From: Scytalidium lignicola
Lineage: Eukaryota; Ascomycota; Leotiomycetes
Direction of reading: 5' to 3'
Length of the DNA stretch: 64,000 bases
Assembly (NCBI GenBank): GCA_002812745.2
Contig: NCSJ02000244.1
Coordinates: 1-64,000 of the forward strand
Shown: positions 1 to 37,412 of the stretch, piece after piece
Layout of the letters: each line of letters begins with the position of its first letter
How positions within the stretch are numbered: position 1 is the first letter of the stretch
The notes under the pieces: model-generated
What the model saw: only the letters and a program-made list of their open reading frames with translations
What the model was told of the DNA's origin: nothing
The model's database searches: none
Program-made: the position numbers and the translations under genes

Positions 1-3000
1 TTTAGAATATAATTAATATAAGTATAATATATACTAACCATATTATTTAACATATTAAACAAATTATTAACTTTAACAAAAGAAAATATATATATATATT
101 TAATCTTCTACTTATGTATATACTAATCATATTCTAATGNANATACAACTTTTAAGCNTAACTTATCTTCTTTAACTTCTCTTACTCTTAATATGTTATT
201 CATATAGATTTTGCATATACTTAGTTAATGTTTATAACCTCTTACTCTACTAAAGGTAAAAGTATTATAAAAAGAGATTATACAATTCTTAAACAAAGTA
301 TAATTTTTACATATATTTAATATATACATTTTATATACTAACAACTAATAAGCACTTGTCATTCTGCATATTTAATTGTTTCAGATAATGATGAAGTATG
401 AAGAGTATATGTAAAACTTAAACTTTACATGTAATTGTCTTTGCTTTAGTATATACTTAACATATTATAGTTATACATGAAAAAAAGTAATAATAAAATC
501 AATTCAAAACATTTATGTTTTATTTATGTTAACTATATACTTTTATTATTACTTTTAAAGTTTTTCTAACTCNTTTTTTAACTTTATATTCTTTCTTTTA
601 TCTTAAAAGAATATCTTTTTATCATTGAATCTCTTATATATATACTTTATATACTTGTTGTTTTATATTATCACTTGAAAGTTAATTTCAATATTATTTT
701 TGTTAAGAACTTATGTTAAGTATATACTGAGTAAGAGTTGAAGGTAAACTTTGTACTGATATTGTTTCCTCTTAAACTGAAGTATTATCTATACTTGATA
801 TTGATATAACATTACTTAATAGATAAAGTGTATGTTTATTAGCAATAGATAAAGTAAGAATATTAAATGGATTTTTAAGATTAAAAGGTAAATAATGTTT
901 TATAAAATAATGTTCAGTTATAAACATTTGTTATTATTCTGTATATGTTTAATATATACAATACATATGTTAAAGGTTATTATACTTACTCTTTGCATTT
1001 ATTTAATTATCTTTACTTGATTACTTTGATTTCTCTAAGAAGTAATAATATTATATTAATCAAATACTTCTTTAATCTAATATATTTCTTTAACTTGATT
1101 TTTAAGTTTAAATATAACATTAGTATATATAAAGTATATAAATAATATATACAATACTTAATCATTATAATAAGTAAAGTAAGTTTTCTTTTAGTATAAT
1201 TATTATCCTAAAAATGATTATTTTCATTAAAGCTTGTATTTTTTCGAATATTAATCTACTATTCAGGAGAAATACAAGACTAGTTTTGAGTAAGACTAAT
1301 AAGAATCCATAATATCATTTTATTTTTGAACTAAGATTCAAGCTTAAGATATTTTTAACATATATTATCTATACATTAAGTTAATTCAGATTTTGAATTA
1401 ACTTCTTAAATGCTATTTATATAAAATCTAGTTAAGTAAGTTGGAAATCTCTTTATAAAATTACACTGAATATATACTATGTAGAAGACTAGTATATACT
1501 TAAGATGTTCATCTTATATATGTGAAAGATTAATATTATGAAGGAAATCTCCAAANTTTATATATAAAATTAGTATATATAATAATTATAAAATAATTAT
1601 ATACTTAATACTTGTTTTTTATATATATCTATTATAATTGTTTTTTATCTTAAATTTCCTTTATGAATATAAGGAAGTCAAATTAGCTTTTGAATAATAT
1701 TACTTAAAACTTCGAAAATTTGAGTAAATATTATAGTATATACAATATGTGTTTTAAGGTTAAGAAAAGCATATACATGAACTTGAATATACTTTGAACT
1801 TTTATCCTAACTTGTTATTGAATATAAGTTAGTTTTACCTTGAACTATTTTAAATGATAAATTCATTTCTAAACATAAAGCCTTGAAAAAAGCTTTAGTT
1901 TGAGCATATATACAGTATATGATAAGATAATACTTATTGTTNAAAAAAATGGATTTTCCGAATCTATTGTTCTTCAATTAGCTTATGACAATCAACATCA
2001 TATTCATGTATTATACTTATAAATTATTAATGATTTTCCTTTTAAGTATATGAATAGTATATACTTACTTGTAAATGTTGTTCTTACTAGAAATCGAAGT
2101 AATTTTTACTTTTGAATAAGTATAAATATTCAATCTTTACAATTTAAGCTTAAGTGAATTTCTTAAAGTATATCTATATAATATTTTCTTTAAAGTTTAA
2201 CACAATATAGGCTAATAATAAAACGGCTTATATTGATTAGATGTAGAACATAGATTTAACATATACAGAACTTACACCTAGTCAAATCCAATAAGTCTAT
2301 TTACTTTATAACATCAATTACATCATTTGCAATATTTGTTGGTAATCAAGTAGGATAAGATGGATGATGTGAATAAGATCCTCGAGAAACAAGACAAATA
2401 AACCTAAAACAATGTATATTTTTAAGAATATAAATATTATATTTTACAAGACAATAATATGTTTGAATATAGCCTTAACCTTGAGGATGATTAAACTTTA
2501 CATAAGTTTAGTATATGTTAAGCATATAGTTCTAATACATATTACATAACCTTTTTCTTTTACTAGTTTGTCTAATATATATACAAGACATTTGTTAATG
2601 TGGTTGAATTCTATTCTCTACTAAGATTTTTAAATAATTAAAATCTATTTGAGTAGTAAATTGAGGAATAGCTTATACTGTATGCTAAAGTTTATTATTA
2701 TTATTAAATGGACATTTAATATATACAATCTATAATGTTAACATATACTCAGGATATAAATTGTATATACTTACCTTATTCCTTTCAAATATTATAATTC
2801 TTTAAGAAGAACACTAAGAAATATCATCATGTAAACATTGATGATTAGTTTGATTCTAATTCTGTTGAAAAGCATTAAAAAACTGTTCTGTTTTATATTG
2901 ATTTTACTCTTCAACTTTATTATACTAATAAAGTCTACTTGCTAATTTTCTAAGATTATTAATCTTTTCTAGCTCAACCTTGTTATATGTTAGATTTGTA

Positions 3001-3850
3001 TAAAGTATATACAAATGTGCATATTAACAATGTTTAATCTTATTACATTGTTATACTTAATAGTATACTCTATTCTTAATGTACTTAAGTAATAAAAGCT
3101 TTACTGAAGTTAATTTATCAGTATAGTATATTAAGAATTGAATTTATTATTGTTAATATATGTTTAATATATGTAAAACTTATGTATAATATACTTTTGA
3201 CATTTGTTCATGAATAAAGCTTTGTACTGCATTAATATCTATATCTGTAATATCAAAATTAATATAAATAAAATGAACAACTCTTATTATACTTATTATA
3301 AGATATATAAGCATATTAAAGTGATTTTCGATTATTATAACTATAATTTTTCATTATTTACTTAAACTAAAAATGATTCCATTTTAGTAAATTGTATTCT
3401 TAAAAGATAATTAGTATAAACATAGCATATGCACAAGATATACTTACCTTATCTAATCTTATAAATGATAATCTACTAACATAATCTTCTTCTTTGATAT
3501 CTTCTTCTGATTCTTCTAATTCTTCTTGATTTAACCTTGTAAAGTCTTCATCTGAAAAATCAATTTCATCAATATCTTNAAAACTAAATAATTTAANATT
3601 AATATTTATTAAATATAATTATAATAAATTAATAAACTTACATTATTATCATTTAACTATATTATTACTGTTAAATATACAAAAGAATCATTTATTATTT
3701 AAAAAGAAAGTTAATAGTTGAAGATTAAAAAGAGTAATATAAAAATAACTTATACTACTTTTTTGTTACCAACTTCAAAGACAGCTCAGCATATATATAT
3801 TTAGTATATACTTGGATTAATTCTAGACTTTTACTAAACTTTGCGAAAAT
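1..3850. repeat. AT-rich, probably RIP-mutated block without genes
   Basis: The stretch is extremely A+T rich and full of TpA steps and of the short palindrome GTATATAC, and no reading frame resembles a known protein. It gives way at about 3.85 kb to sequence of ordinary composition. Conversion of CpA to TpA in repeated DNA by repeat-induced point mutation would produce this in a filamentous ascomycete, so I infer decayed transposons. On the minus strand, roughly 3,435-3,580 encodes an acidic stretch rich in D, E and S that could be a relic of an element's protein. Mitochondrial origin is less likely because the sequence runs on into nuclear-type genes. Several single Ns lie here, many next to T or A runs. 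Confidence 0.7.
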
Positions 3851-4164
3851 TTTTTTATACCTCTTCTGACATTATGCCAAACTTGTAGTTTACACTTCCT
3901 TTGAAATTCAACACACTTTCGTTGAACTAGGTCTTGTGCTTAGACTGCAGCATGGAGCCTTATAGGTTAAGTTAAATCTTGTTTAGTCCTACTCATAAAG
4001 CTTTATGCTGCAGCCTATGTACGCTTTCTGCAATGAAACTACTAGTTTAATTTATTACATTATCACTGTCTTCCTCTTCTAAATTTAATATGCTAGCAAC
4101 TTATGAATCGCATTGTAAACGCCTAAGTCTTATTAGTATTAGTCTCTTCTCGGTAGGGATAATA

Positions 4165-5224: not shown

Positions 5225-7023
5225 AACGTGTTCTGAATGCTTTTTTGACGTGTAATAGCCTTTCTAGCCTTCCTTTGAGTTTGTTGAAGCTGTTGTTCAA
5301 TAGCTTTTTAGACCTTTGCCTCCTCACGAGCCTGCTGTTTCTCCAGAGCCTCACACGCCTTCTTTTCCCTAGCCAACTGTCGCTCCAATTGCCTCTGAAC
5401 TTTATCAGCTTCCATTTTTGCTTTCCTAATTGCTACAGCTGCTTTACACACTGCTTTAACTTCCTTTTTCTCCTATTCTTCAGCATCCTTTTAAGCCAAA
5501 ACCTCTTTGGCTTTAAGGATGCAGGTAAGGCTAAAAAACTAAGCCTCTTCACCTGATTCTCCTACTAAATTAAAGTGCCTAGACCTCTGGTTTTTTTGCT
5601 TTTGGAGTGCTAGTGAGTTAATTAACCCTCGGTTATAATGCTGAGAAATGCTGAGTTCAGCTGATAGCTTGTAATTGCAGTGAAAGATATGCTGTAATTT
5701 TGCAGATAAAGGACTCCTCATATATGATTGCTGTGCTCTACGAATAGCCAAATAATCCAAAGGTGTTTCTGGAGGTTTGATTGGTTGTAAAGGAAGTGAT
5801 TCTATTTTTGGGAACAAAATAGCCATAGTTTTAGCTAAATTAAGTAGGTAAATGCCTGTTTTTTCGAAGCCATGCCTAATATGCTCAGGAGTGAAGGTTT
5901 TGAGCCATACAACCATAAACATTTATAAAAACAACCTTTTAGTAATAGAAACCATGCCAAATCCCTCATGAAAGATCTTGTTTTGTTGATTGGTATATTC
6001 AGTGGCCAGAGGTTGAAATATATTCACATCAAGTGGTTGGAGTCAATAGGTAGTATGAGGTAGAAGGATCATTATAATTATTCGATGCTGGTCCACAAAA
6101 TCAAGAAATCGCATATTTACATGGCTAGAATAGCCATCTACAATCAATAGGCATTTCCTTCCTTTTACAAGATCTTTAGTATGTAGTTTAAAAATGCGTT
6201 TTAACCACTGAAATCCAAAGGCATTTGAACTCCATCCATTTGCAGAAGCACTTATATAAACTTGATCTCTAGGCTTTAGATCTTGAACCTAGTTATCTCG
6301 TAAATCATGTGATTCTCCTGTATATATAAGGCCAGGTGGAAGAGCAATTCCTGTTGCTGAAATGCATGCCAAAATAGATATAAACTCCTTGTTACCATCT
6401 TGAGTGTTGTGAGCTTTGCTAGTCTCATATGCTTTTCGAGTGAGAATGCGCTTTGATGTAACCATTACACCTATCAGAAAACCCTTTTCATCGATATTGT
6501 ATATGTTTTCAGCTATGATGTGGTGTTGATCGATGCCATCGGATAGCTAGAATATGTATAGTCAGCATTTTGTATTCATTCAATTGATAACAACTGAAAT
6601 AAAGCCAAAAACCACTTAACTAATTGATAAAAATGCACAAAAATAGGTTCATACTTTGACTTGACATGTCTTTTATCCATATTACGCAAGTAAACACTTG
6701 AAATCTCATCTTCATAGCATCTCACAAAATTGGCTACCCAATTCTTCCCTACAAGCCCTTGTATGATCTCTTCTGCGAGGTTTTTGACTATTTGACTGGT
6801 TGGAGGCATTCCACGATCAGTCATACGATTGATATGACCAATCAAAACCTTCTCCTGAGTGCTGTTCAAACGTTGACGCGTCTCTGAATTAGCATCCTCC
6901 CTAGTGCCCTGAATTTTTTTGAATCGACGCGCCAGCGTAGTACGGTTAACTCCATATTTTAAAGCGGTAGCACTGTAATTAGGCTCTTCCTGCGATTTTA
7001 AATCAGTAATTGCCTCATCCATT
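5225..7023 (-). pseudogene. Broken pogo-family transposase (HTH_psq, CENP-B HTH, DDE_1)
   Basis: The natural start is the Met at 7023 (MDEAITDLK), inside the right TIR; upstream Met codons in the same frame lie outside the element. The first segment (to about 6600) shows a psq-type helix-turn-helix (YSATALKYGVNRTTLARRFK) and a CENP-B-like domain (STQEKVLIGHINRMTDRGMP, then GKNWVANFV). The DDE endonuclease region, about 6570 to 5950, can be followed only in pieces through several stops. The C-terminal part at 5922-5539 (HGFEKTGIYLLNLAK) is open, and further down comes a Lys/Glu/Arg/Gln-rich region usual for fungal pogo transposases. Since the catalytic core is interrupted, it should not encode active transposase. 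Confidence 0.8.
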
Positions 7024-7080
7024 GGAGCGTTGTGTGTTGAGATATTGAAGGTTGAAGTTGTTGTTGTTGTTGAACGCGAT

Positions 7081-7122
7081 GTGGTCGGAACCTTGGAGTG
7101 GTCGTCACGTGGGGATGTCGAG
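7081..7122. repeat. Right TIR of the pogo-like element
   Basis: A 42-bp terminal repeat that is the inverted copy of 4968-5009 and is followed directly by the TA target duplication. Confidence 0.9.
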
Positions 7123-7292
7123 TATGTCGTCGGCTTATACGAAGAGCGAATCGGATCGGACTCATACACGTTCGTTCTTCCCGCCTATTTTACTGCACCC
7201 TACCATTTGATTGGTTGGTTGCTCGGCTATTCTACAGTGTATTGCCATACGGTGCGCCCACCTACGAAATCCATATCGCTACCGTTCCTAAT

Positions 7293-15521: not shown

Positions 15522-17425
15522 ATGATCCGGCCTGAGATCGTTGTGTCGCAGCCCTCCATTCTTCCTCTGCGACACGTCCCGTCATCCTCTCAATCACGAA
15601 GACCTCGTCCGCCTCGAGCTGCCGGGAAAGGATGTTGGACGTGCCGAAGAAGAAAGGTCCGGGTAGGTGGCCCCTCTCTCTTGGCTGGAAGATCTGTAGC
15701 CCGGAGGTAATCAACCAGGCTAACTGGTCGAACACAGTGTGACCGTGGGAAGCCAGAATGTCAGCGCTGCTTCACCACTGGTAGAAAGTGCAGTGGGTAT
15801 GAACAAGACTTTAACTTTGTGGTAACAACAAGCTCCAACTGGCCTCATCAACCCTCCTGTCCCAGGCACGCAGCGTTAGGGAAAGAGACTGGAAGCAAGG
15901 ACCAAGCACGGTTCCAGACTGCGAGAAATTGTCCTTTCTGTAGCAGAGATCCCGCACAGCCGGGTCCACCTACATTGTATAAAATACCAGACCAAAAGGC
16001 CATCAGCTGTGAGCTCTTTACCAGAGTGTTCATGGACTTGTTCCTGCCGCGCAACCAGGTAACCGACAGCATGACAGCGCTGCCAGGTGGCTGGATATGT
16101 CTCCTGCCCACGCTATTTCATGGTCGGAACGAGGTCCTTAATAAGAGCTTACTGGCTCTGTACACTGGTTTTGTTGGTCGCAAAACTGGAGATGCCAGAC
16201 TAGCAAGCAGGGGGACTGAGCTCTATATTGATGCTCTTCAAGCTCTACGGCAAAGTGAGATATGGTCTTCACAGAGAGGGAATAATGATATCGATGCACA
16301 GCTAGCAACGACAATGGTATTTTCGCGCTGTGAACTATTGCTAGCTGAGGGTGCTGGCTATATGCACCATGTTCGAGGAGGATTGCAGTTGATAAAGCGA
16401 TTTGCTTCTCGACTACCTTCCAGTGAGCTATCTAAACTGCTTGTGAAGAAATTCAGATGCCTAGGAGTAAGTGAAAATGCTCCGGGTGCTAATGAAACCT
16501 TTTTCATTCCTCGCCTATGTCATTCTCTTTACGTCTAGTTCTGACATTTCTTTAGTATTACGAAGCTGTTAGGCACAGAAAGGCCTTCTTTATGGCATAT
16601 CCACCATACAATAAACTATATCCAGCTGTTCCAAGTGATTCTGACTATCTAATCCAAAGAGGCTTTGAGTGTACGGCATGGATGACAACAATTATGGAGC
16701 AAGCTGACAAGCTAGATGCAATGAGTTGTTCGACAGAGAAAGCAGCAAGACGAGGACAGCGTGCAGCAGCAGATCTCTTACGATTTGCTCTTAAGTTGGA
16801 TCAGAATGCTGCTGCGTGGTACTCGGAAATTTGCCACACTCTTAAACCCCCAACTCATGTGCATCTAGAAACCAGCGGAGGTCGCATTAGTTTCCCAAGA
16901 GAACGGCTCATATACGCTAATCCAGGAGACAGCTATGTCTGGATGCTATATTGGAGTATATACCTTAATCTAGGCCAGCTGATTAAGCAAATACAAGCTC
17001 GTTATCACAGCTTAGCAAAGTTGTTACCGGATCCTATCCCTCTTACTAGAGAGTTAGCAGAGTTCGGCGCGGACTATAGCACTCTAGATCAATATGCCGA
17101 AAACGTTGCTGCATCGCTATTTTCAGGATTTGAGCCTAGTCTTTTCACTTCGCAGGAGATCACAGTATCTGTTTTTGCAGCCGTGCTATACTATGGTCAG
17201 CGAGGAGAGGCAGAGAAAGCACATTGGTTGATCAAGGTATTAAAAACGATCGAAAGTCAAGGACTGACAATGAGTTTACAAGTGATGGAGGGGCCAAGCC
17301 ACGCACCAACCGTCCAAGCAGATTTCCTTGCAGACGGTGAGATAGCTGCGCGACGCCCAGAGACCACATCGCCGCCCCAAAATTTGGTAGAGATGCTCGA
17401 GAATATCTCTCCTAGTGTAGATTGA
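15522..17425 (+). CDS. Zn2Cys6 (Gal4-type) fungal transcription factor
   Basis: Three exons, 15522-15662, 15738-16466 and 16556-17425, give about 579 residues. The binuclear zinc cluster is near residues 38-66: GCWTCRRRKVR at the end of exon 1, then CDRGKPECQRCFTTGRKCSGY at the start of exon 2. All six cysteines are present, and the 75-nt intron falls just before the third. The rest resembles the fungal_trans_2-like middle region of many Pezizomycotina regulators: ALYTGFVGRKTGDARL, an MHHVRGG motif, and YYEAVRHRKAFF after the second intron. It should act in the nucleus as a DNA-binding regulator; the target genes cannot be inferred, because no biosynthetic cluster surrounds it. Its nearest downstream neighbour is repeat array A. 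Confidence 0.88.
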
Positions 17426-18705: not shown

Positions 18706-20560
18706 AACCTTCGGCTAATTGCAGATCTGCAACGAAAACTTTGTCTTGAACTGTACACATCGACACTATTCAACCTAATTTATGTGCCGAGCTATATAGC
18801 GCAGGCTTCCGGAAGTCAGAGACGCAACGGAAAGACAGTGCAAGACTACCTGTGGTGGTCCATTTCTTACACTCATGCCGAGCTCTTTAGCGCAAATAAT
18901 TATAGTGAAGAGAAGCAACGAAAATTGATGTAGAAAGAGTTAGCAAAGACATCCTTACTCTCTTCTAGTGTCGGTGAGTGTTATTTATAGCGCCGAGAGA
19001 TATAGTGAAAGAAATTGAACTCAGATTGGCAACGATATTAAATTGATAACCTAGGAAAGCACCAGTTCTAGACTTATAGAACTGACAATATTTGATAACT
19101 TCACAAGCAAGATTCTATAGTGCTAGACATCATAATCAGAGATACAATAAACACCTTTATCAAAACGGTCCTTTACAAATTGTACAGCTATAATTTCAGC
19201 GTTAAGAATGCAAATATAAGTACCTAACTTCTAACTTTGGAGTATAATAACTTGCCTAATAGGCAGTCTAGCACAAGCACTTTGCCACAAATATGTAACA
19301 GAAAGCCATCAAGAACACGCCGAGATCATTAGTGTTTATCCCCATTCAGATTTGAAACAACACGTCTTGACTACAACGATCTCCCATCCCACCTAAATAT
19401 GTGCCGAGATATTTAGTGAAGAAATAGAAATTAGGTGTTCAACAAGAGAGTATCTTGTGTTATGTCGGATCCTTTACTGTGTAGTGAAACACTAAAGATA
19501 AGAGAGATCACCCATCTTCTATCATTTTGATCATATCAAGCCCCTCAGTGCAAAATCCTCCAACTTTGCAACAGTATACCGAAGTTTATAATAAAGATTC
19601 GTAGTATTAGAAACATAACAAAATACACATGAAGTGTATGATGGCACTCTCAGCACAAGGACTATGAAGTTAGAATATAAGCAAAGCTCAAGCCAAGACT
19701 TATAGTGACAAAAAGAGTTATGAGAGATGCATCGAAAAATGAAAATGATGCCGAGCTCTTTAGGGAAAGAATTTAAGTGAAGATATGCAACAAAACCTAA
19801 AGAACAGAATTTGAGTAGGAATACTAGAAAAGATCATGCCGAGTGTTATAGTGAAGAATCCAAACCCAAGATCTGCAACAAGTACAAAGAGCAAGAAACG
19901 TCACCATGCCGAGCTATTAGTGAAAGTGCTCTAATTCAGATCTGTAACGGAAAGAAAGAACAGAAACATAGAAATCTCAATTCTAACCTAAACTTCGCGC
20001 CGAGATATATAGCGAAGAAATTTAAATCCAGACAGACAACGAGAAAAAGCCATAAAATATCATTCACCACGCCGAGCTCTTAGTGAAAGAATTTAAATTC
20101 CAGATCTGCAATAGAAAATAAGGATAGAAAGCAAGAGAAGAGCATTTTTATTATGGGTTAAGAAGTTGCATGCCGAGACATATAGTGAAAGAACTCATAC
20201 CTAAGACCTGCAACGAAAGAAGACCTACAACAAAATACATAAAGCACAAGACAAAGAAGAAGGACACGCCGAGATCTGTAGTGAGAAACACACAAGATCT
20301 AGATCTGCAACGAAATATATCGTGGTCACAAACATAGACGAACGTGTAGGTGTAGTATAGTAGTGCTGAGATGGCATGTAGATTCAGGCCGTGCGGCAAT
20401 GTCTAAAATATGCAAGAGATTTAGGTACAGTACTTGTAAAAATAAAAGTTCTACTTTATGGAAGTCAAAAAGAGACAAGCTGAGAGGGGCGGAATGCGTC
20501 GAGTCATTTAGTGAAGGTTTGTAGAAGTCAGATACGCAGCGCGAGGATTGACGAAACCTC
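18706..20560. repeat. Interspersed short-repeat array A (about 13 clear and several decayed units)
   Basis: A roughly 45-50 bp core recurs with dissimilar DNA between copies. The core has a left box close to GCCGAGCTCTTTAGTGAA, a variable A/T-rich middle of about 10-15 bp and a right box close to CAGATCTGCAACGAAA. Clear units start at 18786, 18877, 18992, 19319, 19403, 19750, 19838, 19908, 19999, 20071, 20172, 20268 and 20496; a lone right box is at 18722. Decayed copies fill the larger gaps (about 19117, 19560 and 19700), so the underlying period is about 70-115 bp. All units face the same way. Spacers tend to be purine-rich on the plus strand but otherwise differ. No frame stays open across units, so it is not protein-coding. 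Confidence 0.9.
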
Positions 20561-20801
20561 CGTATTTAGTGCAAAAGATATTGTTATCAAAAGAAGAAAC
20601 CAGCCAAGCACACATTAACCATCTACACTAGCATTATTAAACAGCAAAAACTGTTTTGAGACAAAGGACAAACCATGACGCCAACCCCATCCTGTCTCCC
20701 AAAACCGAAACCACCGTCCATAGTTCTATTCTCATCTGATTTCAAGGTCATAATTTCATACACAGTCTAAACTCCTCCCTTACAGATACGAGAGACCATG
20801 G

Positions 20802-22882
20802 TTAATTAGCTCCCTCAATATGCATACCAAATGCATTGGGCATTCCAATTAATATCTTGCCTCGGGGTACCTTGACATCTTGAACCCCAAAGTTGCCAAA
20901 TACTTTCAAGGTCTTCAAATTGGGACAACTCCTGAAGATAGATCCAACAACAAAATCATTGACTTGTTGACAAAAGCTCATATTCATCTCTTTCAACTCA
21001 GGGTATCTCTTATCGGCGGCAAAGACAGTTTCAAACGCCTCTCTTGAAATGTGTCGACAGGAATTGATGTTAAGGTGCTGAAGAGTGGCGCCTGAGTGCG
21101 CCATTAGCGCAACAAACCCCTTGGATGACAGACCGACTCCCTCTGGATTTTCTCGTGGATCGGCAGCATCAATGTGGCGGCATTTATGGAGATCCACGTA
21201 GGTTAAAGGGGGATTTTGCCAGTTTGTGAAGAGGTTAGCGAATCCTTGGTCTGTTATAACTTCGTTATCCGTTATCCGAAGCTTAGAGAGCCGTTGACAG
21301 TTTTCATGGATTGCTTCCAGGACACTGTCATCGATGTAGTGCGCCGCTGCTATAGATAGGGTCTGGAGTGCAGGACCGATGGAGTTTATGACGTTCACAT
21401 AAGGTTTCGAACTCGTATTTTTATAGAATTCAAGGCTCAGATGTTGGAGGCTTGTTATCTTCGCGATATGGTCTATTCCCGCATCAGTGGCCTTTTGATT
21501 ATGTGAGATCTTTAGCCGATTGAGACCTGGACAAGTCTGGTGGAGTAGTTCGATCTGCTCATCACCAAAATGCCCGTCGGTATAGTAAACTTTCAATGCT
21601 CGCAAGTGTGAACCTTTCTCTCGAAGGAATGACTCCCATCGCTCATCATCAATCAAATTAGCTCCATGTAAGCTAAAGCTCTCCAGCTTGACCGAAGTTC
21701 CAACCAGATGGTCCACGACATTGTTCTTGAACTGGATGGCATTTCGTATTCGAAGATGTTTGATTGTTGGAGTAATTTGAAATATCCGGATATAGTCATC
21801 AGGAAAAAGTTTGGCACCATCATAGACGGTAATTGTATCTGTCCCAGGTCGAAGAAATAAATCAAGGGTTGTAGGTGTTAGGAGCCGTCGCTTCGACAGG
21901 ATAGCTGCCAGTCTGTCGATTAAAGATGGAGGTAGATCGCCAAAATCCTCAGCCAGATCAACATTTTTGGCCAGGGTTTCGATGCATAACGTTACCAGGT
22001 CTTTTGCACCAGGATAAATACCATCCAATAGGTTGCTTTGGACTTGGCGACGTCTGTTGCCGGCAGCCGCAACCTTCCTCTTCCTTTTGCCTGCCCCTTC
22101 CTCCTTGTCCATCTCCTTTGTACACTTTGGGCAGAGAAGCCCGCCGTTAGGTCCCGCTCGACTATACGCTGTGACTGTGAATCGCTTCTCGCAGATGGCA
22201 CAGTTTTCCATCTGGCCGGGCAGAGGTGCCATATTCTGTTCGAAAATCGCCCGAGCTATTTCGTCTTCGTCTTCGTCGGACCCGTCGGAGCCAAGGTACC
22301 GTTTTCGCTGCCGAAATTGTTTCGAAGCCTTAATTTTGGCTATAGCTTTCTGCGAAGTGTCAGTATAACCAACAGAAACCCAAGGGTTGAACCACAATAT
22401 AAAGATAAGATGAAAGGTACTGTACCTCTTCCTCCAATTTTCTCTTCTTCTGCTGGTTCTTGGTCTCGTTCCTTAGCCTCGGGGTTGGTTCCAAATCTGA
22501 ATCTCCATTATCGTCTTCATTGTCGTTATTGGCATCGTCCTGGTGCTGAGAGGCCAATGCTGCTGCTCGTCGAGCGTCGGCATCTTGTCGAATTTGCAAA
22601 GCACTGATGTTATGTGACTATTACCTAATGTCAGCGATAAAGTAGCATACTTGAAAAAGTGAAGAACCTACAGCAAGAAAGTCTGTCAAGGCCGATTGCC
22701 TGAATTGAGCGTTAATGGTGGTGTACACAACCTTTCTCGTAAAGGAGAACTCACGGCCCACGTATCTGCCGGGCAGCAGCACGTCTATCCCGGGGTCCGG
22801 TCGCAGGAGGAGCTGGTGGTGGATTCCTAAATTAATCCAGTCAGAGTGCAATGGTCAATCAGAGCTGGTTTCAACCTACATT
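20802..22882 (-). CDS. RAD7: DNA repair protein Rad7 (nucleotide excision repair, LRR protein)
   Basis: In yeast Rad7 works with Rad16 in global-genome nucleotide excision repair of UV damage and in an Elc1/Cul3-type ubiquitin ligase. Six exons are proposed: 22882 (or earlier)-22881/22880 carrying only AT of the start codon, then 22826-22755, 22699-22672 (28 nt), 22617-22426 and 22349-20802, about 613 residues. The order is: the conserved N-terminal motif RGPQSALTDFLASHNISALQ reconstructed across three junctions, an acidic Lys-rich linker, a Cys4 zinc ribbon (CAICEKRF, then LLCPKC), and leucine-rich repeats to the C-terminus (LKVYYTDGHFGDEQIELL, ending FGMHIEGAN). Yeast Rad7 is 565 residues. 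The start codon appears split by a 53-nt intron (see findings). RAD16 lies divergently about 0.8 kb away. Identity is firm; the first exon is less certain. Confidence 0.93.
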
Positions 22883-23674
22883 TTTGGCTGAGCGGGGGAG
22901 TCTTGCTTCACCCCTCTCCAAAGATTATCGATACCAAGGTTCAGGAATCAATCACAACTCCCAAATTTGATGATGGGAGAGTGGAGAGTCAAGGAGGGAG
23001 AATAGTCACAATTTCTTGTTGACTATTTCATGTAAAGTAGATGTAAAGTAGCCAGAAGCAATTGGAAGGATCTATACGGATAGAAATTGTGCCGTGCGGT
23101 GTGTTTGCGAGTGGTTGAACCGCGGGCGTCGCGACTCCTCCTGATCTGCCGGACGCCCGCTAAAGTGGTTTTTTAAGTGGTTTTTCCTTTTGGGCACCTC
23201 CTGACCAATCACAGGGGCCATTGCTGCCTAAACCGGGGCACCAAGTCACGTGCTGCCGCGCCATCTGCGCGTTCCGCGTCCGAATCGAAAAGTCGATAAG
23301 CAAAGGGGAGAAGAACTGCATCCAAAGAGGCAACTCGCCCCAACTCCCCCTCGACGCTGCTCAGTTCTCGTCTTCTTCTCCTTCTCCTGTTTTGTTTATT
23401 ACTTCTTCTTTCTCGATCTCCCTTCCGCAAAGGAATCGTGAATCTCTGCTGAGCAGTTTGGCTGGGGGCGCATTCGTCTGGTCGCACCAAAACCGACCCC
23501 AACTTTGTTCGTTCGGAGATACCAGTCGTGGTCTGTCGGACTCAACGAGCACGCTGGTTTCTCAACTGAGGAATGCTCTTAGCCATTGCCAAACCTAGTC
23601 ATATTATCTCCTAGTATACTTTCTATCACAATCTCCGATTCAGTCCCTCAATTATCACTTCTTTCCCCGCGATC
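22883..23674. promoter_or_regulatory. Shared intergenic promoter region of RAD7 and RAD16
   Basis: About 0.8 kb separates the divergent start codons. It includes a GC-rich part around 23,090-23,300 with a CCAAT-type box (GACCAATCAC near 23,203) and a long pyrimidine-rich tract at about 23,365-23,430 upstream of the RAD16 ATG, a common fungal core-promoter feature. Coordinated expression of the two partners is an inference. Confidence 0.6.
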
Positions 23675-26600
23675 ATGGCATCTACCAGTCGTTCCAGGGG
23701 AAGACCAAGGAAGGTAACCGACAGTATCAGCAGCAGCCCGGCACCTTCCAGAAGCTCTTGTATGTTTGCTCCTTCTCATAATTAGGGTTCACCTTCTCTT
23801 TTTTCTAGCTTAGCCCATTCTCCTTTAATTCCTCGATTATCTATCCTTATGTGGCCACTTAGCAACCAACAATGCTGATATATCGGGAGCAGCTACCCGT
23901 CGATCGCTCCGTCTTGTGGGAGATGGACTTGTTGCGGTTGCGGAAAGAAGGTCCACTCGCCGTTCAACCATCGTTGTTGATAGCGAAGGACCTTCCGGTT
24001 TCAACTCACCAGCACCAGTCTCCAAAGGTGATGTGAAGGTCGTCTCAGCGGGTCGCACTTCCCTCTCGTCGGCTTCTACAATGAATGATTCTACCTCGAG
24101 CAGTGGCTATTCCACACCTGCCACCAGTGCTATTGCTACTCCCGCATCGATTGCAGCTGAAATAAAACCCTCGAATACTAGAAGAGGTCGTCGTTCTGCT
24201 CCAGACATGATGGATACTATTCCAAAGCCCACTGTCACTCTTGCTACTAGGGCAAAAGCACTACGCAATAGCGAGTTCTCAATGAACCCCAGAAATAAGA
24301 GAAAGAGGGAGGAATCAGACGATGAGGATGTCGAGCTGGATAACACTGCGGATGCTCAACTTGCTCGTGCTCTTCAGGAGGAGGAAGATGCACTCGCTGC
24401 GTCGATGGCGGGCGATGCTAGCATTGAAGTTGGCGGGCCACAGTCAGCCGTAAGAAGAGGACGACAACGAGATTTTGCATCTTCTAGTACATCTAAGAGA
24501 CCGAAGATTGAGCTCAATTCGCAAGGCTCCAACTCGGTAAAGTATGAAAGGGAGGAGACTACTCCATCAATCTCTGACAGTGAAGCTTCGGATGAAGATG
24601 AGGTCTTTGAACCCTCAGACCCCGATTATGAATCAGATGCTCCGTTCTCCAAGGTGACACCCAAAGGTCTGAAAGTCCCGCAATCCCCCACCGATTTTTC
24701 AGACTCTGACACACCCCTCTCTGCAAAACTTGGAAGGCGTATAATTAAGTCTGCTAGCAAGAAGAAGGTCACTCATCCAAAGGCCACAAGTGGGAGCAGC
24801 CGTAATGCAACTGCTACAAAGGCCACTTCTTCGGTCTCTACGCTCACCAGTGTTGGTTCAACTCCACTTACCCTTAGTGAATTGGAAGAGGATGCAGAGA
24901 TAGCCAGATTGGATGCTGAGCTAGAGAGCGAATTTAATTCCACAATAACGGCTATAGTCTCCGACGCTGAGGACAGCTCTGAATCCGATGGACCCAACCG
25001 CATTAATGTTCCCAGAATTGTGAGGAATCGCCGCGAGGGCGCCAGGTTACGGAGAGCAAAGAAAGAGCGTGAACGTCTAGAAACTCACCATCCGGAATTG
25101 CAAACGATGTGGATAGATTTAGAAAATATGCCGAAGATTGAATCCGTTCGGGGAGAACAACCTAAGAACATTAGTCGGCAGTTAAAACCTTTCCAACTCG
25201 ATGGTGTTGCATGGATGCGAGCTATGGAAGAAACAGAATGGGGAGGCGGGTTACTTGGCGATGAGATGGGTATGGGGAAGACGATTCAAGCTGTGTCTCT
25301 CATCATGTCAGACTTCCCCGCCAAGCAACCCTCACTTGTCCTGATCCCCCCAGTGGCTCTTATGCAATGGCAGCAAGAAATAGCAGATTACACTGATGGC
25401 ACATTGAAGACCTTCGTGTTTCATGGGACAAACGCAAAGTCCAAGTCAATGACTGTGAAAGAACTCAAGCAATACGATGTTATCCTCATGTCATACAACA
25501 GTCTGGAGTCCATGTATAGGAAGCAAGAAAAGGGTTTCAAGCGTAAAGACGGGATCCATAAGGAGAAAAGTGTGATCCATCAAATCAAATTCCACCGGGT
25601 CATCCTGGATGAAGCACATAATATTAAGGTAAGAAATATTAACAGTACAGAGTATGCTTACTAAACTCTTTTACAGCAACGTACTTGTGGAAGTGCAAAA
25701 GCATGTTTTGCACTGAAGGCAGATCATAAATGGTGTTTATCTGGTACACCATTACAAAATCGAATTGGTGAATTCTTCTCGCTGGTTCGATTTTTGAATA
25801 TTAAACCATTCTCTTGTTACTTCTGCAAGCAATGCCCATGTGCCACACTGGAATGGGACATGAACGAAGAGAACCGTTGTAAGAGCTGCAACCACAATGG
25901 CATGCAACATGTTTCCGTCTTCAATCAAGAATTACTGAACCCGATTCAAAGATGGGGAAACCATGGTCCTGGAAAAGAGGCATTTGCGAAACTGAGATTG
26001 CTCACTGATCGATTCATGCTTCGTCGTGTCAAGCGAGATCATTCATCAGCTATGGAACTTCCAGCCAAAGAAATCTACGTTGATCGACAATTCTTTGGTG
26101 AAGAAGAAAATGATTTTGCAGGCAGCATCATGAATAATGGTAATCGCAAATTCGAGACTTACGTCGCTCAGGGTGTCTTGCTTAATAACTACGCCAACAT
26201 TTTTGGTCTCATCATGCAAATGCGTCAGGTTGCTGATCATCCAGATCTGATTCTCAAAAAGAATGGCGAAGGTGGTCAGAACATACTAGTCTGTTGCATC
26301 TGCGACGAGACCGCAGAGGAAGCCATTCGATCAGCTTGCCGTCACGATTTCTGCCGAGAGTGTGCAAAGAATTATCTCAATTCAACCGGTGCATCTCCAT
26401 GACCTTATTTCATTTACAGCGGGCTAACTTCTAATAGAATCTCCCGATTGTCCTCAGTGTCATATCCCGTTGAGTATTGATCTTGAACAGCCTGACATCG
26501 AACAAGATGAGCAATTGGTCAAGAAATCATCCATCATTAATCGTATCAAGATGGAGAACTGGACATCATCGTCCAAGATCGAGACCTTAGTACACGATTT

Positions 26601-27146
26601 GCACGAGCTGCGGTCACACAATTCTTCCAGCAAGTCCATTATCTTCAGTCAGTTTACAACAATGGTTCGTCCTAGTCGTCTTTTTTGAACTTCTGTAGAA
26701 ATACTAATACAACGTAGCTACAACTTGTGGAATGGCGTCTTCGTCGTGCCGGCATAACAACCGTCATGTTAGACGGGAGCATGACCCCTGCACAACGCCA
26801 AGCCTCCATAAACCACTTCATGAACAACGTAGATGTCGAGTGTTTCCTCGTCTCCCTTAAAGCAGGCGGTGTGGCACTCAACCTGACTGAAGCGTCGAAA
26901 GTCTTCATCGTCGACCCATGGTGGAATCCAGCTGCAGAATGGCAATCCGCCGACCGTTGCCATCGTATTGGACAGAGCCGTCCTTGCAGCATTACGAGAC
27001 TCTGTATCGAGGACAGTGTAGAAAGTCGTATGGTGTTGTTGCAGGAGAAGAAGGCCAATATGATCAATAGTACTATTAATGCAGATGAGAGTGCAATGGA
27101 GAGTCTAACCCCGGAGGATATGCAATTCTTGTTTAGAGGAAGTTAA
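23675..27146 (+). CDS. RAD16: DNA repair protein Rad16 (SNF2-family ATPase with RING finger)
   Basis: Partner of Rad7: an ATP-dependent DNA translocase and ubiquitin-ligase subunit for nucleotide excision repair of non-transcribed DNA. Five exons, 23675-23759, 23863-25628, 25677-26388, 26438-26664 and 26718-27146, encode about 1,072 residues. The first 400 are acidic and Ser-rich and probably disordered. Then follow the SNF2 N-terminal ATPase lobe with Walker [10 protein letters not shown] and the DEAH box; an inserted C3HC4 RING ([20 protein letters not shown], then CRECAKNY and CPQC), which the third intron splits; and the helicase C-terminal lobe ending in motif VI ([12 protein letters not shown]). 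It is longer than yeast Rad16 (790 aa) mainly through the N-terminus, as usual in filamentous fungi. Confidence 0.96.
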
Positions 27147-36007: not shown

Positions 36008-37412
36008 AGTCAGAATGTGCGATCATAGTCATAGAGCTACAAAGTGCAGCAAGATTATGCACCATCTGTGATTGAGCTCCCTTACTAAGTTTCCACATAA
36101 CAACCTATTTCAAATTAGAAATTGTATAGATTAGTCAATACCAAGACATGCGATATGTAACAAAATGTATATTCCCATGTGGATTTGAATAACCAGCCAC
36201 GTGCCAAGATAATGCGATGTGCAACAATTCTAAGTGCCCATTACATTCTATGACGCACTCACTAGTATGGTGAGTGAATAGGATCCCTTCCCAAGGACTT
36301 GCGATGTGCAACAAAAGGATTCCTTCCTTTGAGGTGCAATCTCCAATCCGTTTTTGGTTACACTTGCTAACAAGGTACATCATACAACAGCTCATATAAC
36401 TGAATATGTAAATCTGTACACTAATCTTTGCCAAGGACCTGCGATATGCAACAAAACTAAGCATTCTTTGAGATATGTTATCTTCTTTACATTCACAAGG
36501 CCCTACTGGATGAGTAACCAGTCCACGAGCGGACAGCTTAGGATTGCCAAGATACGATCTGCAACATAGTCATACTTAGACAATACCTTAGCTGCTTCTA
36601 CACCGGATTACCTATGCAACTGGGTGATGTCAACTAGACGTCCAGTTCCTGCCAAGAGCTTGCGATTTGCAACAAAATAGTCGTAAAGGAGAGATCAAAT
36701 AGCCGAATATCTCAAGAGCTAGAGAGCTAGGAGTTGCCAAGATGCTGCGATGTACAACAAAATCTAATGGGCACCCTGAGATCAGACAAGCTGTTAATTC
36801 AGTGAAGACTCACTAAAGGACCCGTCATCATTGGTGAATCTGTAGCTTTAGCAGAAGATTCCTTTCAAGACTTTTCAATCTACAACAAAACAAAGGACGC
36901 CACTTCCAAACAGCACCAAGTTGTCACAAGTTCCACATGACTACTTTCAAGCCTCTCCGACGTGCAACAAAGAAGACATTAGGGGGTGCTATTCTTCAAG
37001 CGAAGTAGCTAGAACCGATCAGCTGGACCCCTGCCAAGTCTGTGCGATTTGCAACAAAATGGAGATACAAGGGACCAAAGGACGCTACATGCATATGAAG
37101 TGGATATTCAAGCAAACAGCTGAACCTTGTTGGCTCTTTGCGATGTGCAACAAAGAGAACCGAAGAGACGTTTTTCTATCCTAATTGTCAGACAGGTTAA
37201 ATGGTTAACCCTTGCCAAGTATATGCGATGTGCAACAAAAGAAGATTTTAATATTCAAAGGTGCTTAGGATCTATGATTTGGACACTTAATCGATCATCT
37301 GACATTACGATGTGCAACAAAATATAAGGCTCTATTCAAGCAGGACAGATAAGGCTGTAGCTTCCACCCCAACTTACCCTTGGCAAGAACCCAGTACTGT
37401 AGGTGACAAAAT
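36008..37412. repeat. Interspersed short-repeat array B (about 14 units)
   Basis: A core of about 27 bp recurs: left box GCCAAG, four variable bases, then TGCGATGTGCAACAAAA. Units start at about 36141, 36203, 36290, 36430, 36547, 36651, 36736, 36865, 36947, 37033, 37127, 37214, 37301 and 37382; a weak one is near 36008. Start-to-start distances are mostly 80-105 bp (range 62-140). All units are in one orientation. Spacers differ, although several end in a C-rich run (CCTTGCCAAG, CCCTGCCAAG) just before the left box, so the conserved unit may be slightly longer. No reading frame stays open across units. The outer boxes resemble those of array A. Confidence 0.9.

What the first reader, a model, noticed from the sequence alone, without database searches (positions are those of the whole stretch)
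18706..20560. CRISPR-like spaced repeat array in a fungal chromosome (array A)
At least 13 same-oriented copies of a 45-50 bp bipartite core (GCCGAG...TAGTGAA, then CAGATCTGCAACGAAA) recur every 70-115 bp over 1.85 kb, with largely dissimilar spacers and no coding potential. The consensus contains nested palindromic pieces: GAGCTC, CTTT...AAAG around AGTG, GAATTTAAATTC and AGATCT. Both end boxes stay conserved while the middle and spacers drift. This suggests selection on the boxes as protein-binding sites or RNA elements, rather than plain minisatellite decay. I know of no described fungal element of this form.
Basis: partly seen in the sequence, partly recalled or inferred. Interest (0 to 1): 0.9.

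Follow-up and report, generated by a model that had tools for sequence, protein, structure and literature searches.

The report
Dispersed fungal arrays of paired boxes
Short arrays of a rigid two-part DNA site, kept constant while everything around it has drifted, are scattered between genes of a mould genome and look like docking platforms for an unidentified DNA-binding protein.

Summary
The array is real (window 18718-20576, about 14 copies, all on +), but it is neither CRISPR-like nor a lone old minisatellite. It belongs to a dispersed family in this genome, Scytalidium lignicola. A strict two-box pattern has 68 exact matches genome-wide, 0 with the reversed-pattern control, at 25 places. 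In 132 units from 21 examined places the core is about 46-48 bp: GCCGAG-N3-TWTAG-(TGA or CGC), with AGANNYGCAAC starting 30-33 bp after the start of GCCGAG. Spacers carry almost no information. In aligned array segments from nine locus pairs, box positions are 95% identical, other core positions 70%, spacers 73% (p 8e-18): purifying selection on the boxes. No RNA fold, Rfam, tRNA or 5S kinship was found, and no shared neighbouring gene family. The window's second array (36.1-37.3 kb) and others share the right-hand box but have different left halves. Best reading: DNA-level arrays bound by a protein (or family) reading a common right half and a type-specific left half, building multivalent intergenic platforms. 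The binding protein and role are inferred, not shown. Rivals are a box-driven selfish satellite and a transcribed RNA element. Conservation in other species could not be tested.

The parts
18718..20576 (+). Array A: 14 bipartite units (type A) at E<0.05, plus a right-box-only copy at 18718-18737, a weak copy at 19115 and a left-half fragment at 20563-20576
   Evidence: nhmmer profile, repeat families, box-score control, sequence
20170..20216 (+). A well-preserved type A unit: GCCGAG..TATAGTGAA and right box AGACCTGCAACGAAA
   Evidence: E 2.1e-8; strict pattern hit C160:20172-20214
18785..18830 (+). Type A unit of the CGC subclass (TATAGCGCA)
   Evidence: E 1.6e-8; subclass analysis
36136..37322 (+). 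Array B: 12-13 type B units, core TNCCAAG-N4-TGCGATNTGCAACAAAA (28 bp), unrelated spacers, between a copper amine oxidase gene (-) and an alpha-amylase gene (+); a 141-aa frame without a Pfam domain lies between it and the amylase
   Evidence: flanks; genome-wide right-box pattern 42 hits vs 0 control
15711..17425 (+). Left neighbour of array A: two open frames, the first with a Zn(2)Cys(6) cluster domain; pointing towards the array
20802..22397 (-). Right neighbour of array A: Rad7-like DNA repair gene, 3' end facing the array (convergent pair)
   Evidence: several homologues named DNA repair protein RAD7, and a 100% match to Scytalidium lignicola B7463_g9576

Best explanation
Array A is one member of a genome-wide family of homotypic arrays of a bipartite DNA site. 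Each unit is a rigid core of about 46-48 bp made of two halves. The left half is GCCGAG-N3-TWTAG-TGA or -CGC. The right half is AGANNYGCAACRAAA. Units sit about 82 bp apart on freely drifting spacer DNA between ordinary genes. I infer that each core is bound as DNA by one protein or protein complex: one part reads the right half shared by the array types seen, another reads the type-specific left half (type A GCCGAG..TATAG, type B GCCAAG, type C GGTTGGTC). I further infer that rows of sites build a multivalent nucleoprotein platform between genes, most plausibly a boundary, roadblock or terminator, or chromosome-organising element. SHOWN: the family, its rigid geometry, constraint on the boxes, the shared right half, the two co-varying left-half subclasses, and strand switches inside arrays. 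INFERRED: binding by protein, the common-plus-variable reader, and the role.
For: Strict pattern: 68 exact genome-wide, control 0. Distance: 121 of 188 left boxes have a right box starting 30-33 bp on; in six other 4-bp bins the numbers are 2-7 of 188 (recount). Mutual prediction: of 89 exact right boxes, 64 have a left box of at least 11 of 13 at the proper distance (mirror-side control 1 of 89); of 90 exact left boxes, 75 have a right box of at least 8 of 9 (control 0 of 90). Longest aligned array segment of each of nine locus pairs: box columns 341/360 identical, other core 357/511, spacer 345/473, p 8e-18; three first-chosen pairs: 124/133, 139/183, 186/243. Spacers near 0 bits, most box positions 1.1-2.3 bits. 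Left-half subclasses TAGTGA and TAGCGC: 63 and 34 matched against 4 and 2 mixed (p 2e-20), both inside the same arrays. No RNA structure on 84 units. Strand switches with good units in L030 (6+, 3-) and L026 (2+, 1-), and type C on the opposite strand to type A in L038. Weak helical preference in unit spacing (p 0.023 at 10.5 bp). Other sets share the right half: type B 42 vs 0, AGAYNTGCAACAAAA 72 vs 0, type C in L038.
Against: No binding protein is identified; a zf-C2H2 search listed 28 matches with at most two adjacent, though a search with so short a model is insensitive. Of 20 arrays with two or more type A units 18 keep one strand, and in tandem gene settings units mostly point with the genes, which would also fit an RNA element. 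In some aligned segments the contrast is weak or absent: L023/L024 box 15/19 against spacer 51/65; L035/L036 spacer 21/24. The box mask rests on units found by a profile that needs boxes, and BLAST-chosen segments are not independent. 67 of 188 fuzzy left boxes have no right box at the proper distance, and 25 of 89 exact right boxes have no good left box. The exact right box with GAAA is less clean: 19 hits against 4 in the control. Helical phasing is weak and the best of 11 tested periods was 11.0. No expression, chromatin or cross-species data.
Confidence: 0.6

Rival explanations
1. Selfish satellite family: short tandem arrays that spread by segmental copying or box-dependent recombination or transposition, kept because the box is needed for their own spread (as proposed for CENP-B-box-like motifs of nematode satellites), with no host role.
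For: Arrays have been copied between loci: L030 and L032 share about 290 bp including spacers in inverted orientation, and nine locus pairs have aligned array segments of 100 bp or more. Neighbours scanned are ordinary genes with no shared family. A large Tc5-type transposase DNA-binding family is present (78 matches). Different array types share one box. The published precedent is PMC3694981 (passages seen).
Against: Arrays are small (2-16 units by profile in the 20 examined). BLAST of arrays with 1.5-kb flanks showed no terminal repeat or boundary sequence common to them; a 250-bp repeat lies near three of 21 places. By eye, of the 72 right-box hits only the C26 group lies within 5 kb of one of the 78 transposase domains.
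Confidence: 0.2
2. Transcribed RNA element: the arrays lie in long 3' UTRs or lncRNAs and the boxes are linear sites for an RNA-binding protein.
For: Of 15 arrays whose flanking genes could be oriented, 6 lie between convergent and 9 between tandem genes, 0 between divergent ones; in the tandem settings units point with the genes in 6, against in 1, and 2 loci are mixed.
Against: No consensus structure and no Rfam match. Good units on both strands within L030 and L026, and back-to-back left boxes at C111:411974-412012. Weak helical spacing preference. Array B in the window and the single unit L041 lie between divergent genes.
Confidence: 0.13
3. Old neutral minisatellite, the reader's null: tandem copies decayed at one rate.
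For: Slight residual similarity between spacers of one array (mean local score 10.85 vs 9.93 shuffled; between arrays 9.92), so arrays did grow by tandem duplication.
Against: GCCGAG positions are 90-98% and GCAAC positions 92-95% conserved beside saturated positions; box vs spacer identity p 8e-18; dispersed genome-wide.
Confidence: 0.03
4. Array of Pol III-type or small-RNA genes (tRNA-, 5S- or snoRNA-like units).
For: Unit size of about 80 bp; GCCGAG resembles part of a tRNA A box and TGATGA resembles a C box in some units (recalled resemblances).
Against: No tRNA in 20 loci or the window. One of the genome's own 5S genes shows no similarity to the core (p 0.75 and 0.30 on the two strands). 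No Rfam match even at E 10 over array A. No conserved pairs.
Confidence: 0.03

Closest known systems
CENP-B-box-bearing satellites (human alpha satellite; Meloidogyne satDNAs with Box 1/Box 2, passages of PMC3694981)
   Same: Otherwise divergent tandem repeats share one short conserved box. The reverse complement of the type A right half begins TTTCGTTG, as the human CENP-B box does (CENP-B box recalled from memory).
   Different: The CGGG half of the CENP-B box is absent, and the type B right box reads TTTTGTTG. Here the site is a rigid bipartite one of about 46 bp, arrays have 2-16 units, and they lie in intergenic DNA among ordinary genes rather than in long satellite blocks.
Caenorhabditis elegans pairing centres (HIM-8/ZIM proteins; passages of PMC3820632)
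   Same: Clusters of short motifs with several versions, each recruiting a paralogous protein.
   Different: Array types occur on many contigs, sometimes two types on one contig. Chromosome assignment is unknown, no reader is known, and the genus generally lacks a sexual state (PMC6256649).
RTS1/Rtf1 polar fork barrier of fission yeast (passages of PMC10473836)
   Same: Several copies of a protein-bound motif within a few hundred bp.
   Different: One locus with four repeats and a known Myb-type protein; here two-half units at 25 or more places and no identified protein.
VosA/velvet target motif CTGGCCaaGGC (passages of PMC3876986)
   Same: Contains GCCAAG, the type B left box.
   Different: An 11-bp promoter motif; the right half and the rigid geometry are absent.

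Membership tests
CRISPR array | Near-identical direct repeats with unique spacers of near-constant length | tested here: not met
   84 units (of 132, the better-scoring ones of length 46-50) have 69% mean column identity; adjacent-unit spacing sd 12.6 bp
CRISPR array | cas genes nearby | tested here: not met
   Neighbours of array A are a Zn-cluster gene and a Rad7-like gene; the neighbouring frames scanned at 19 further loci carry no Cas domain in Pfam; no dedicated Cas search was run
CRISPR array | Spacers matching invaders | tested here: inconclusive
   Array A as a 1855-bp query finds only itself in its own genome, but that search also missed the related arrays, so it is insensitive; viruses were not searched
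Neutral minisatellite | Same substitution rate in boxes and spacers | tested here: not met
   341/360 vs 345/473 identical over nine locus pairs, p 8e-18; 124/133 vs 186/243 in three
CENP-B-box satellite | A 17-bp box matching the CENP-B essential bases | tested here: not met
   By eye against the recalled box: the TTCG half is present in type A, CGGG is absent
CENP-B-box satellite | Binding by a CENP-B/pogo-type protein | not testable with these tools
   78 Tc5-type DNA-binding domains occur in the genome, but binding cannot be tested
Pairing-centre-like arrays | Type-specific arrays on particular chromosomes, read by paralogous proteins | not testable with these tools
   664 contigs, no chromosome map
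RTS1-like polar fork barrier | Orientation-dependent replication arrest by a Myb-type protein | not testable with these tools
   Only orientation can be read: 18 of 20 arrays with two or more type A units are one-directional
5S/tRNA-derived element | Sequence kinship to 5S or tRNA genes | tested here: not met

The most novel reading that the evidence does not exclude
A combinatorial DNA address system in a fungus. A common protein reads the constant right half of all arrays and a set of partner proteins reads the type-specific left halves (A with its two subclasses, B, C, possibly more), so that arrays label intergenic sites for chromosome organisation, comparable in logic to pairing centres or insulator clusters but not descended from them.
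Probability: 0.2. Interest if true: 0.9.

Novelty: new variant of a known kind. Interest (0 to 1): 0.72.

Why it matters
I know of few non-coding DNA families of fungi with such clear constraint on a long rigid site while the surrounding DNA drifts (recall, plus the library searches listed under Tried and rejected). The shared right half across array types would make it directly testable whether a genome can use one constant and several variable half-sites as intergenic labels. It also gives a simple profile with which to search other Leotiomycetes.

Tried and rejected
5S rRNA origin (suggested by recalled resemblance): no similarity above shuffles for one 5S gene of this genome. tRNA or TFIIIC sites: no tRNA called, and the right half lacks the B-box invariants (recalled). 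Rfam at gathering over the window and at E 10 over array A: nothing. RNA fold of 84 units: no pairs. Coding repeat: spacing and core length not in frame. Long C2H2 finger reader: not seen, in an insensitive search. Alternation of the two left subclasses along arrays: not above permutation (37 vs 34.5, p 0.30). Type C strict pattern genome-wide: two hits, both in L038's contig, so type C is so far one locus. A shared transposon around arrays: only a 250-bp repeat near three of 21 places. Literature: search listings showed no report of such arrays in fungi; these cover only the held open-access library. Searches were searches for the RTS1 and velvet analogues.

Rows dropped before counts: 8 of 61 raw two-box matches were left out of the seed profile by eye as spurious; 48 of 132 units were left out of the alignment for score or length; 20 of 132 units could not be parsed for the subclass test. 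The segments were three that I picked; one search repeats the test on all aligned array segments of at least 100 bp (20 segments, nine locus pairs), and the result became stronger.

Full report
SOURCE. The genome searched as G000 has 46.85 Mb in 664 contigs. That paper describes an Ion Torrent draft, so homopolymer indels are to be expected (my inference) and may blur spacing by a base or two.

OBSERVATION. Array A is as described: 14 units at E<0.05 on the + strand, plus weak and half copies, well above a Markov control. It lies between a Zn-cluster gene pointing at it (15711-17425 +) and the 3' end of the Rad7-like gene (20802-22397 -).

FAMILY. A left-box pattern with up to two mismatches gives 140 hits against 77 in the control, and many of those listed cluster (the list was cut off). 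The CGC subclass pattern with up to one mismatch gives 54 against 0. The two-box pattern without mismatches gives 68 against 0, at 25 places on 23 contigs; 15 of the 25 places have two or more such exact units. I fetched 20 places chosen. Together with the window, an iterated profile finds 132 units in 21 places, and 20 of the 21 have two or more; L041 has one. These places were selected by the left box. The right box was not used to select them, and it is as well conserved.

ANATOMY. Information is concentrated in GCCGAG, TWTAG.G, AGA and GCAAC with the base after it, with weaker A/T-rich stretches; three positions after GCCGAG, most of the middle and the flanks beyond the core are close to background. 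The right box starts 30-33 bp after the left box for 121 of 188 fuzzy left boxes, against 2-7 of 188 in six other 4-bp bins (recount). Exact right boxes predict left boxes (64 of 89, mirror control 1 of 89), and exact left boxes predict right boxes (75 of 90, control 0 of 90). Units lie 82.6 bp apart on average (sd 12.6, 85 neighbouring same-strand pairs under 125 bp), with a weak preference for multiples of about 10.5-11 bp. Left tails fall into two classes, TAGTGA and TAGCGC, with 6 mixed cases among 103. Both classes occur in the same arrays, and they are loosely linked to the base before GCAAC in the right half (p 0.002) (112 of 132 units could be parsed). Because neighbouring free positions are saturated, simple inheritance does not easily explain this coupling. 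Two recognition modes would.

EVOLUTION. Spacers of one array keep slight similarity (10.85 against 9.93 shuffled), and spacers of different arrays keep none on average (9.92), while cores of different arrays score 20.8 against 11.6 for shuffled cores (76 spacers). Arrays therefore grew by tandem duplication long ago, and some blocks were copied between loci, most clearly L030/L032. Over the longest aligned array segment of each of nine locus pairs, box columns are 341/360 identical, other core columns 357/511 and spacers 345/473. Over my three first-chosen segments the figures are 124/133, 139/183 and 186/243. L023/L024 alone shows no contrast (15/19 against 51/65). The segments are BLAST-chosen and overlap in descent, so the p values are a guide only.

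OTHER TYPES. Array B in the window has a 28-bp core TNCCAAG-N4-TGCGATNTGCAACAAAA. Its right pattern has 42 hits against 0, with runs at C199, C629 and C266; the strict two-box form has 8 against 0. GCCRAG to GCAAC is 18 bp, against 37-38 bp in type A: about two helical turns less (my arithmetic). L038 carries a third type on the + strand, about GGTTGGTC upstream of AGANNYGCAACGAAA, beside type A units on -. The strict type C pattern hits only that contig. The bare right half AGAYNTGCAACAAAA has 72 hits against 0, with a run of seven at C593; AGANNYGCAACGAAA has 19 against 4. So the right half is common and the left half differs by type.

SURROUNDINGS. I oriented flanks by the nearest open frame with a Pfam domain or at least 250 aa. 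Of the 20 type A arrays with two or more units, 15 could be resolved: 6 convergent (L022, L025, L026, L032, L039, window), 9 tandem (L027, L028, L030, L031, L034, L035, L037, L038, L040) and 0 divergent. Five are open (L023, L024, L029, L033, L036). Some of these frames lack a Pfam domain (L037 right, both of L039, the second frame left of array A) or were not scanned (L026 left). Convergent against divergent is 6 to 0. In tandem settings type A units point with the genes in L027, L028, L031, L035, L037 and L040, against them in L034, both ways in L030, and with them in L038, whose type C units point against. Array B of the window and the single unit L041 lie between divergent genes, so the rule does not hold for all types. 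Neighbours are ordinary (MFS, Rap1-like, Urb2, oxysterol-binding, P450, NAD kinase and others), and no one family recurs beside them apart from MFS at two loci.

MECHANISM. The rigid core, the absence of RNA pairing, units on both strands, constraint on boxes and the two co-varying subclasses point to recognition as double-stranded DNA by a protein or complex with a long footprint. The shared right half suggests a common subunit and a variable partner. The role is open.

COMPARISON. The closest precedent is satellites that differ in all but short conserved boxes, as reported for Meloidogyne (PMC3694981, passages), and motif clusters such as nematode pairing centres (PMC3820632, passages) and RTS1 (PMC10473836, passages). 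In what I saw of them none has this two-half geometry with a constant and a variable half. My searches of the held library (listings only) found no description of it in fungi. Whether relatives have the arrays could not be tested, because no fungal relative is held.

Noticed in passing
window 36136-37322: Second array (type B) with a related right box and different left half, in a 5-kb gap between divergent genes.
   Followed up: yes
L038 4035-5396 (+) and 4722-5026 (-): Composite locus: a third array type (GGTTGGTC left half) on one strand next to type A on the other.
   Followed up: partly
C593:6141-7326, C57:49663-50422, C26:98701-100225: Further runs of AGAYNTGCAACAAAA and AGACGTGCAACGAAA with about 95-600 bp spacing; many single copies genome-wide (72 against 0 control). 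Left halves mostly not seen for lack of letters.
   Followed up: no
L030 4979-5258 and L032 5027-5301: Parts of two arrays are inverted copies of each other including spacers, so array blocks have moved between loci.
   Followed up: yes
L024 6077-6328, L040 5233-5488 and 3820-3987, L041 3890-4063: An unidentified dispersed repeat of about 250 bp lies within about 1.1 kb of three type A places.
   Followed up: no
window 6579-7184 (-): Tc5-type transposase DNA-binding domain, one of 78 in the genome.
   Followed up: partly
window 1-3900: Block of 18-22% G+C at the contig end, against 27-53% in the rest of the window, resembling the AT-rich blocks of fungi with repeat-induced mutation (recalled).
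   Followed up: no
window 20802-27146: Rad7-like and Rad16-like (SNF2/RING) genes lie next to each other in divergent orientation; the Rad16 naming is recalled from the sequence, not from a call.
   Followed up: no
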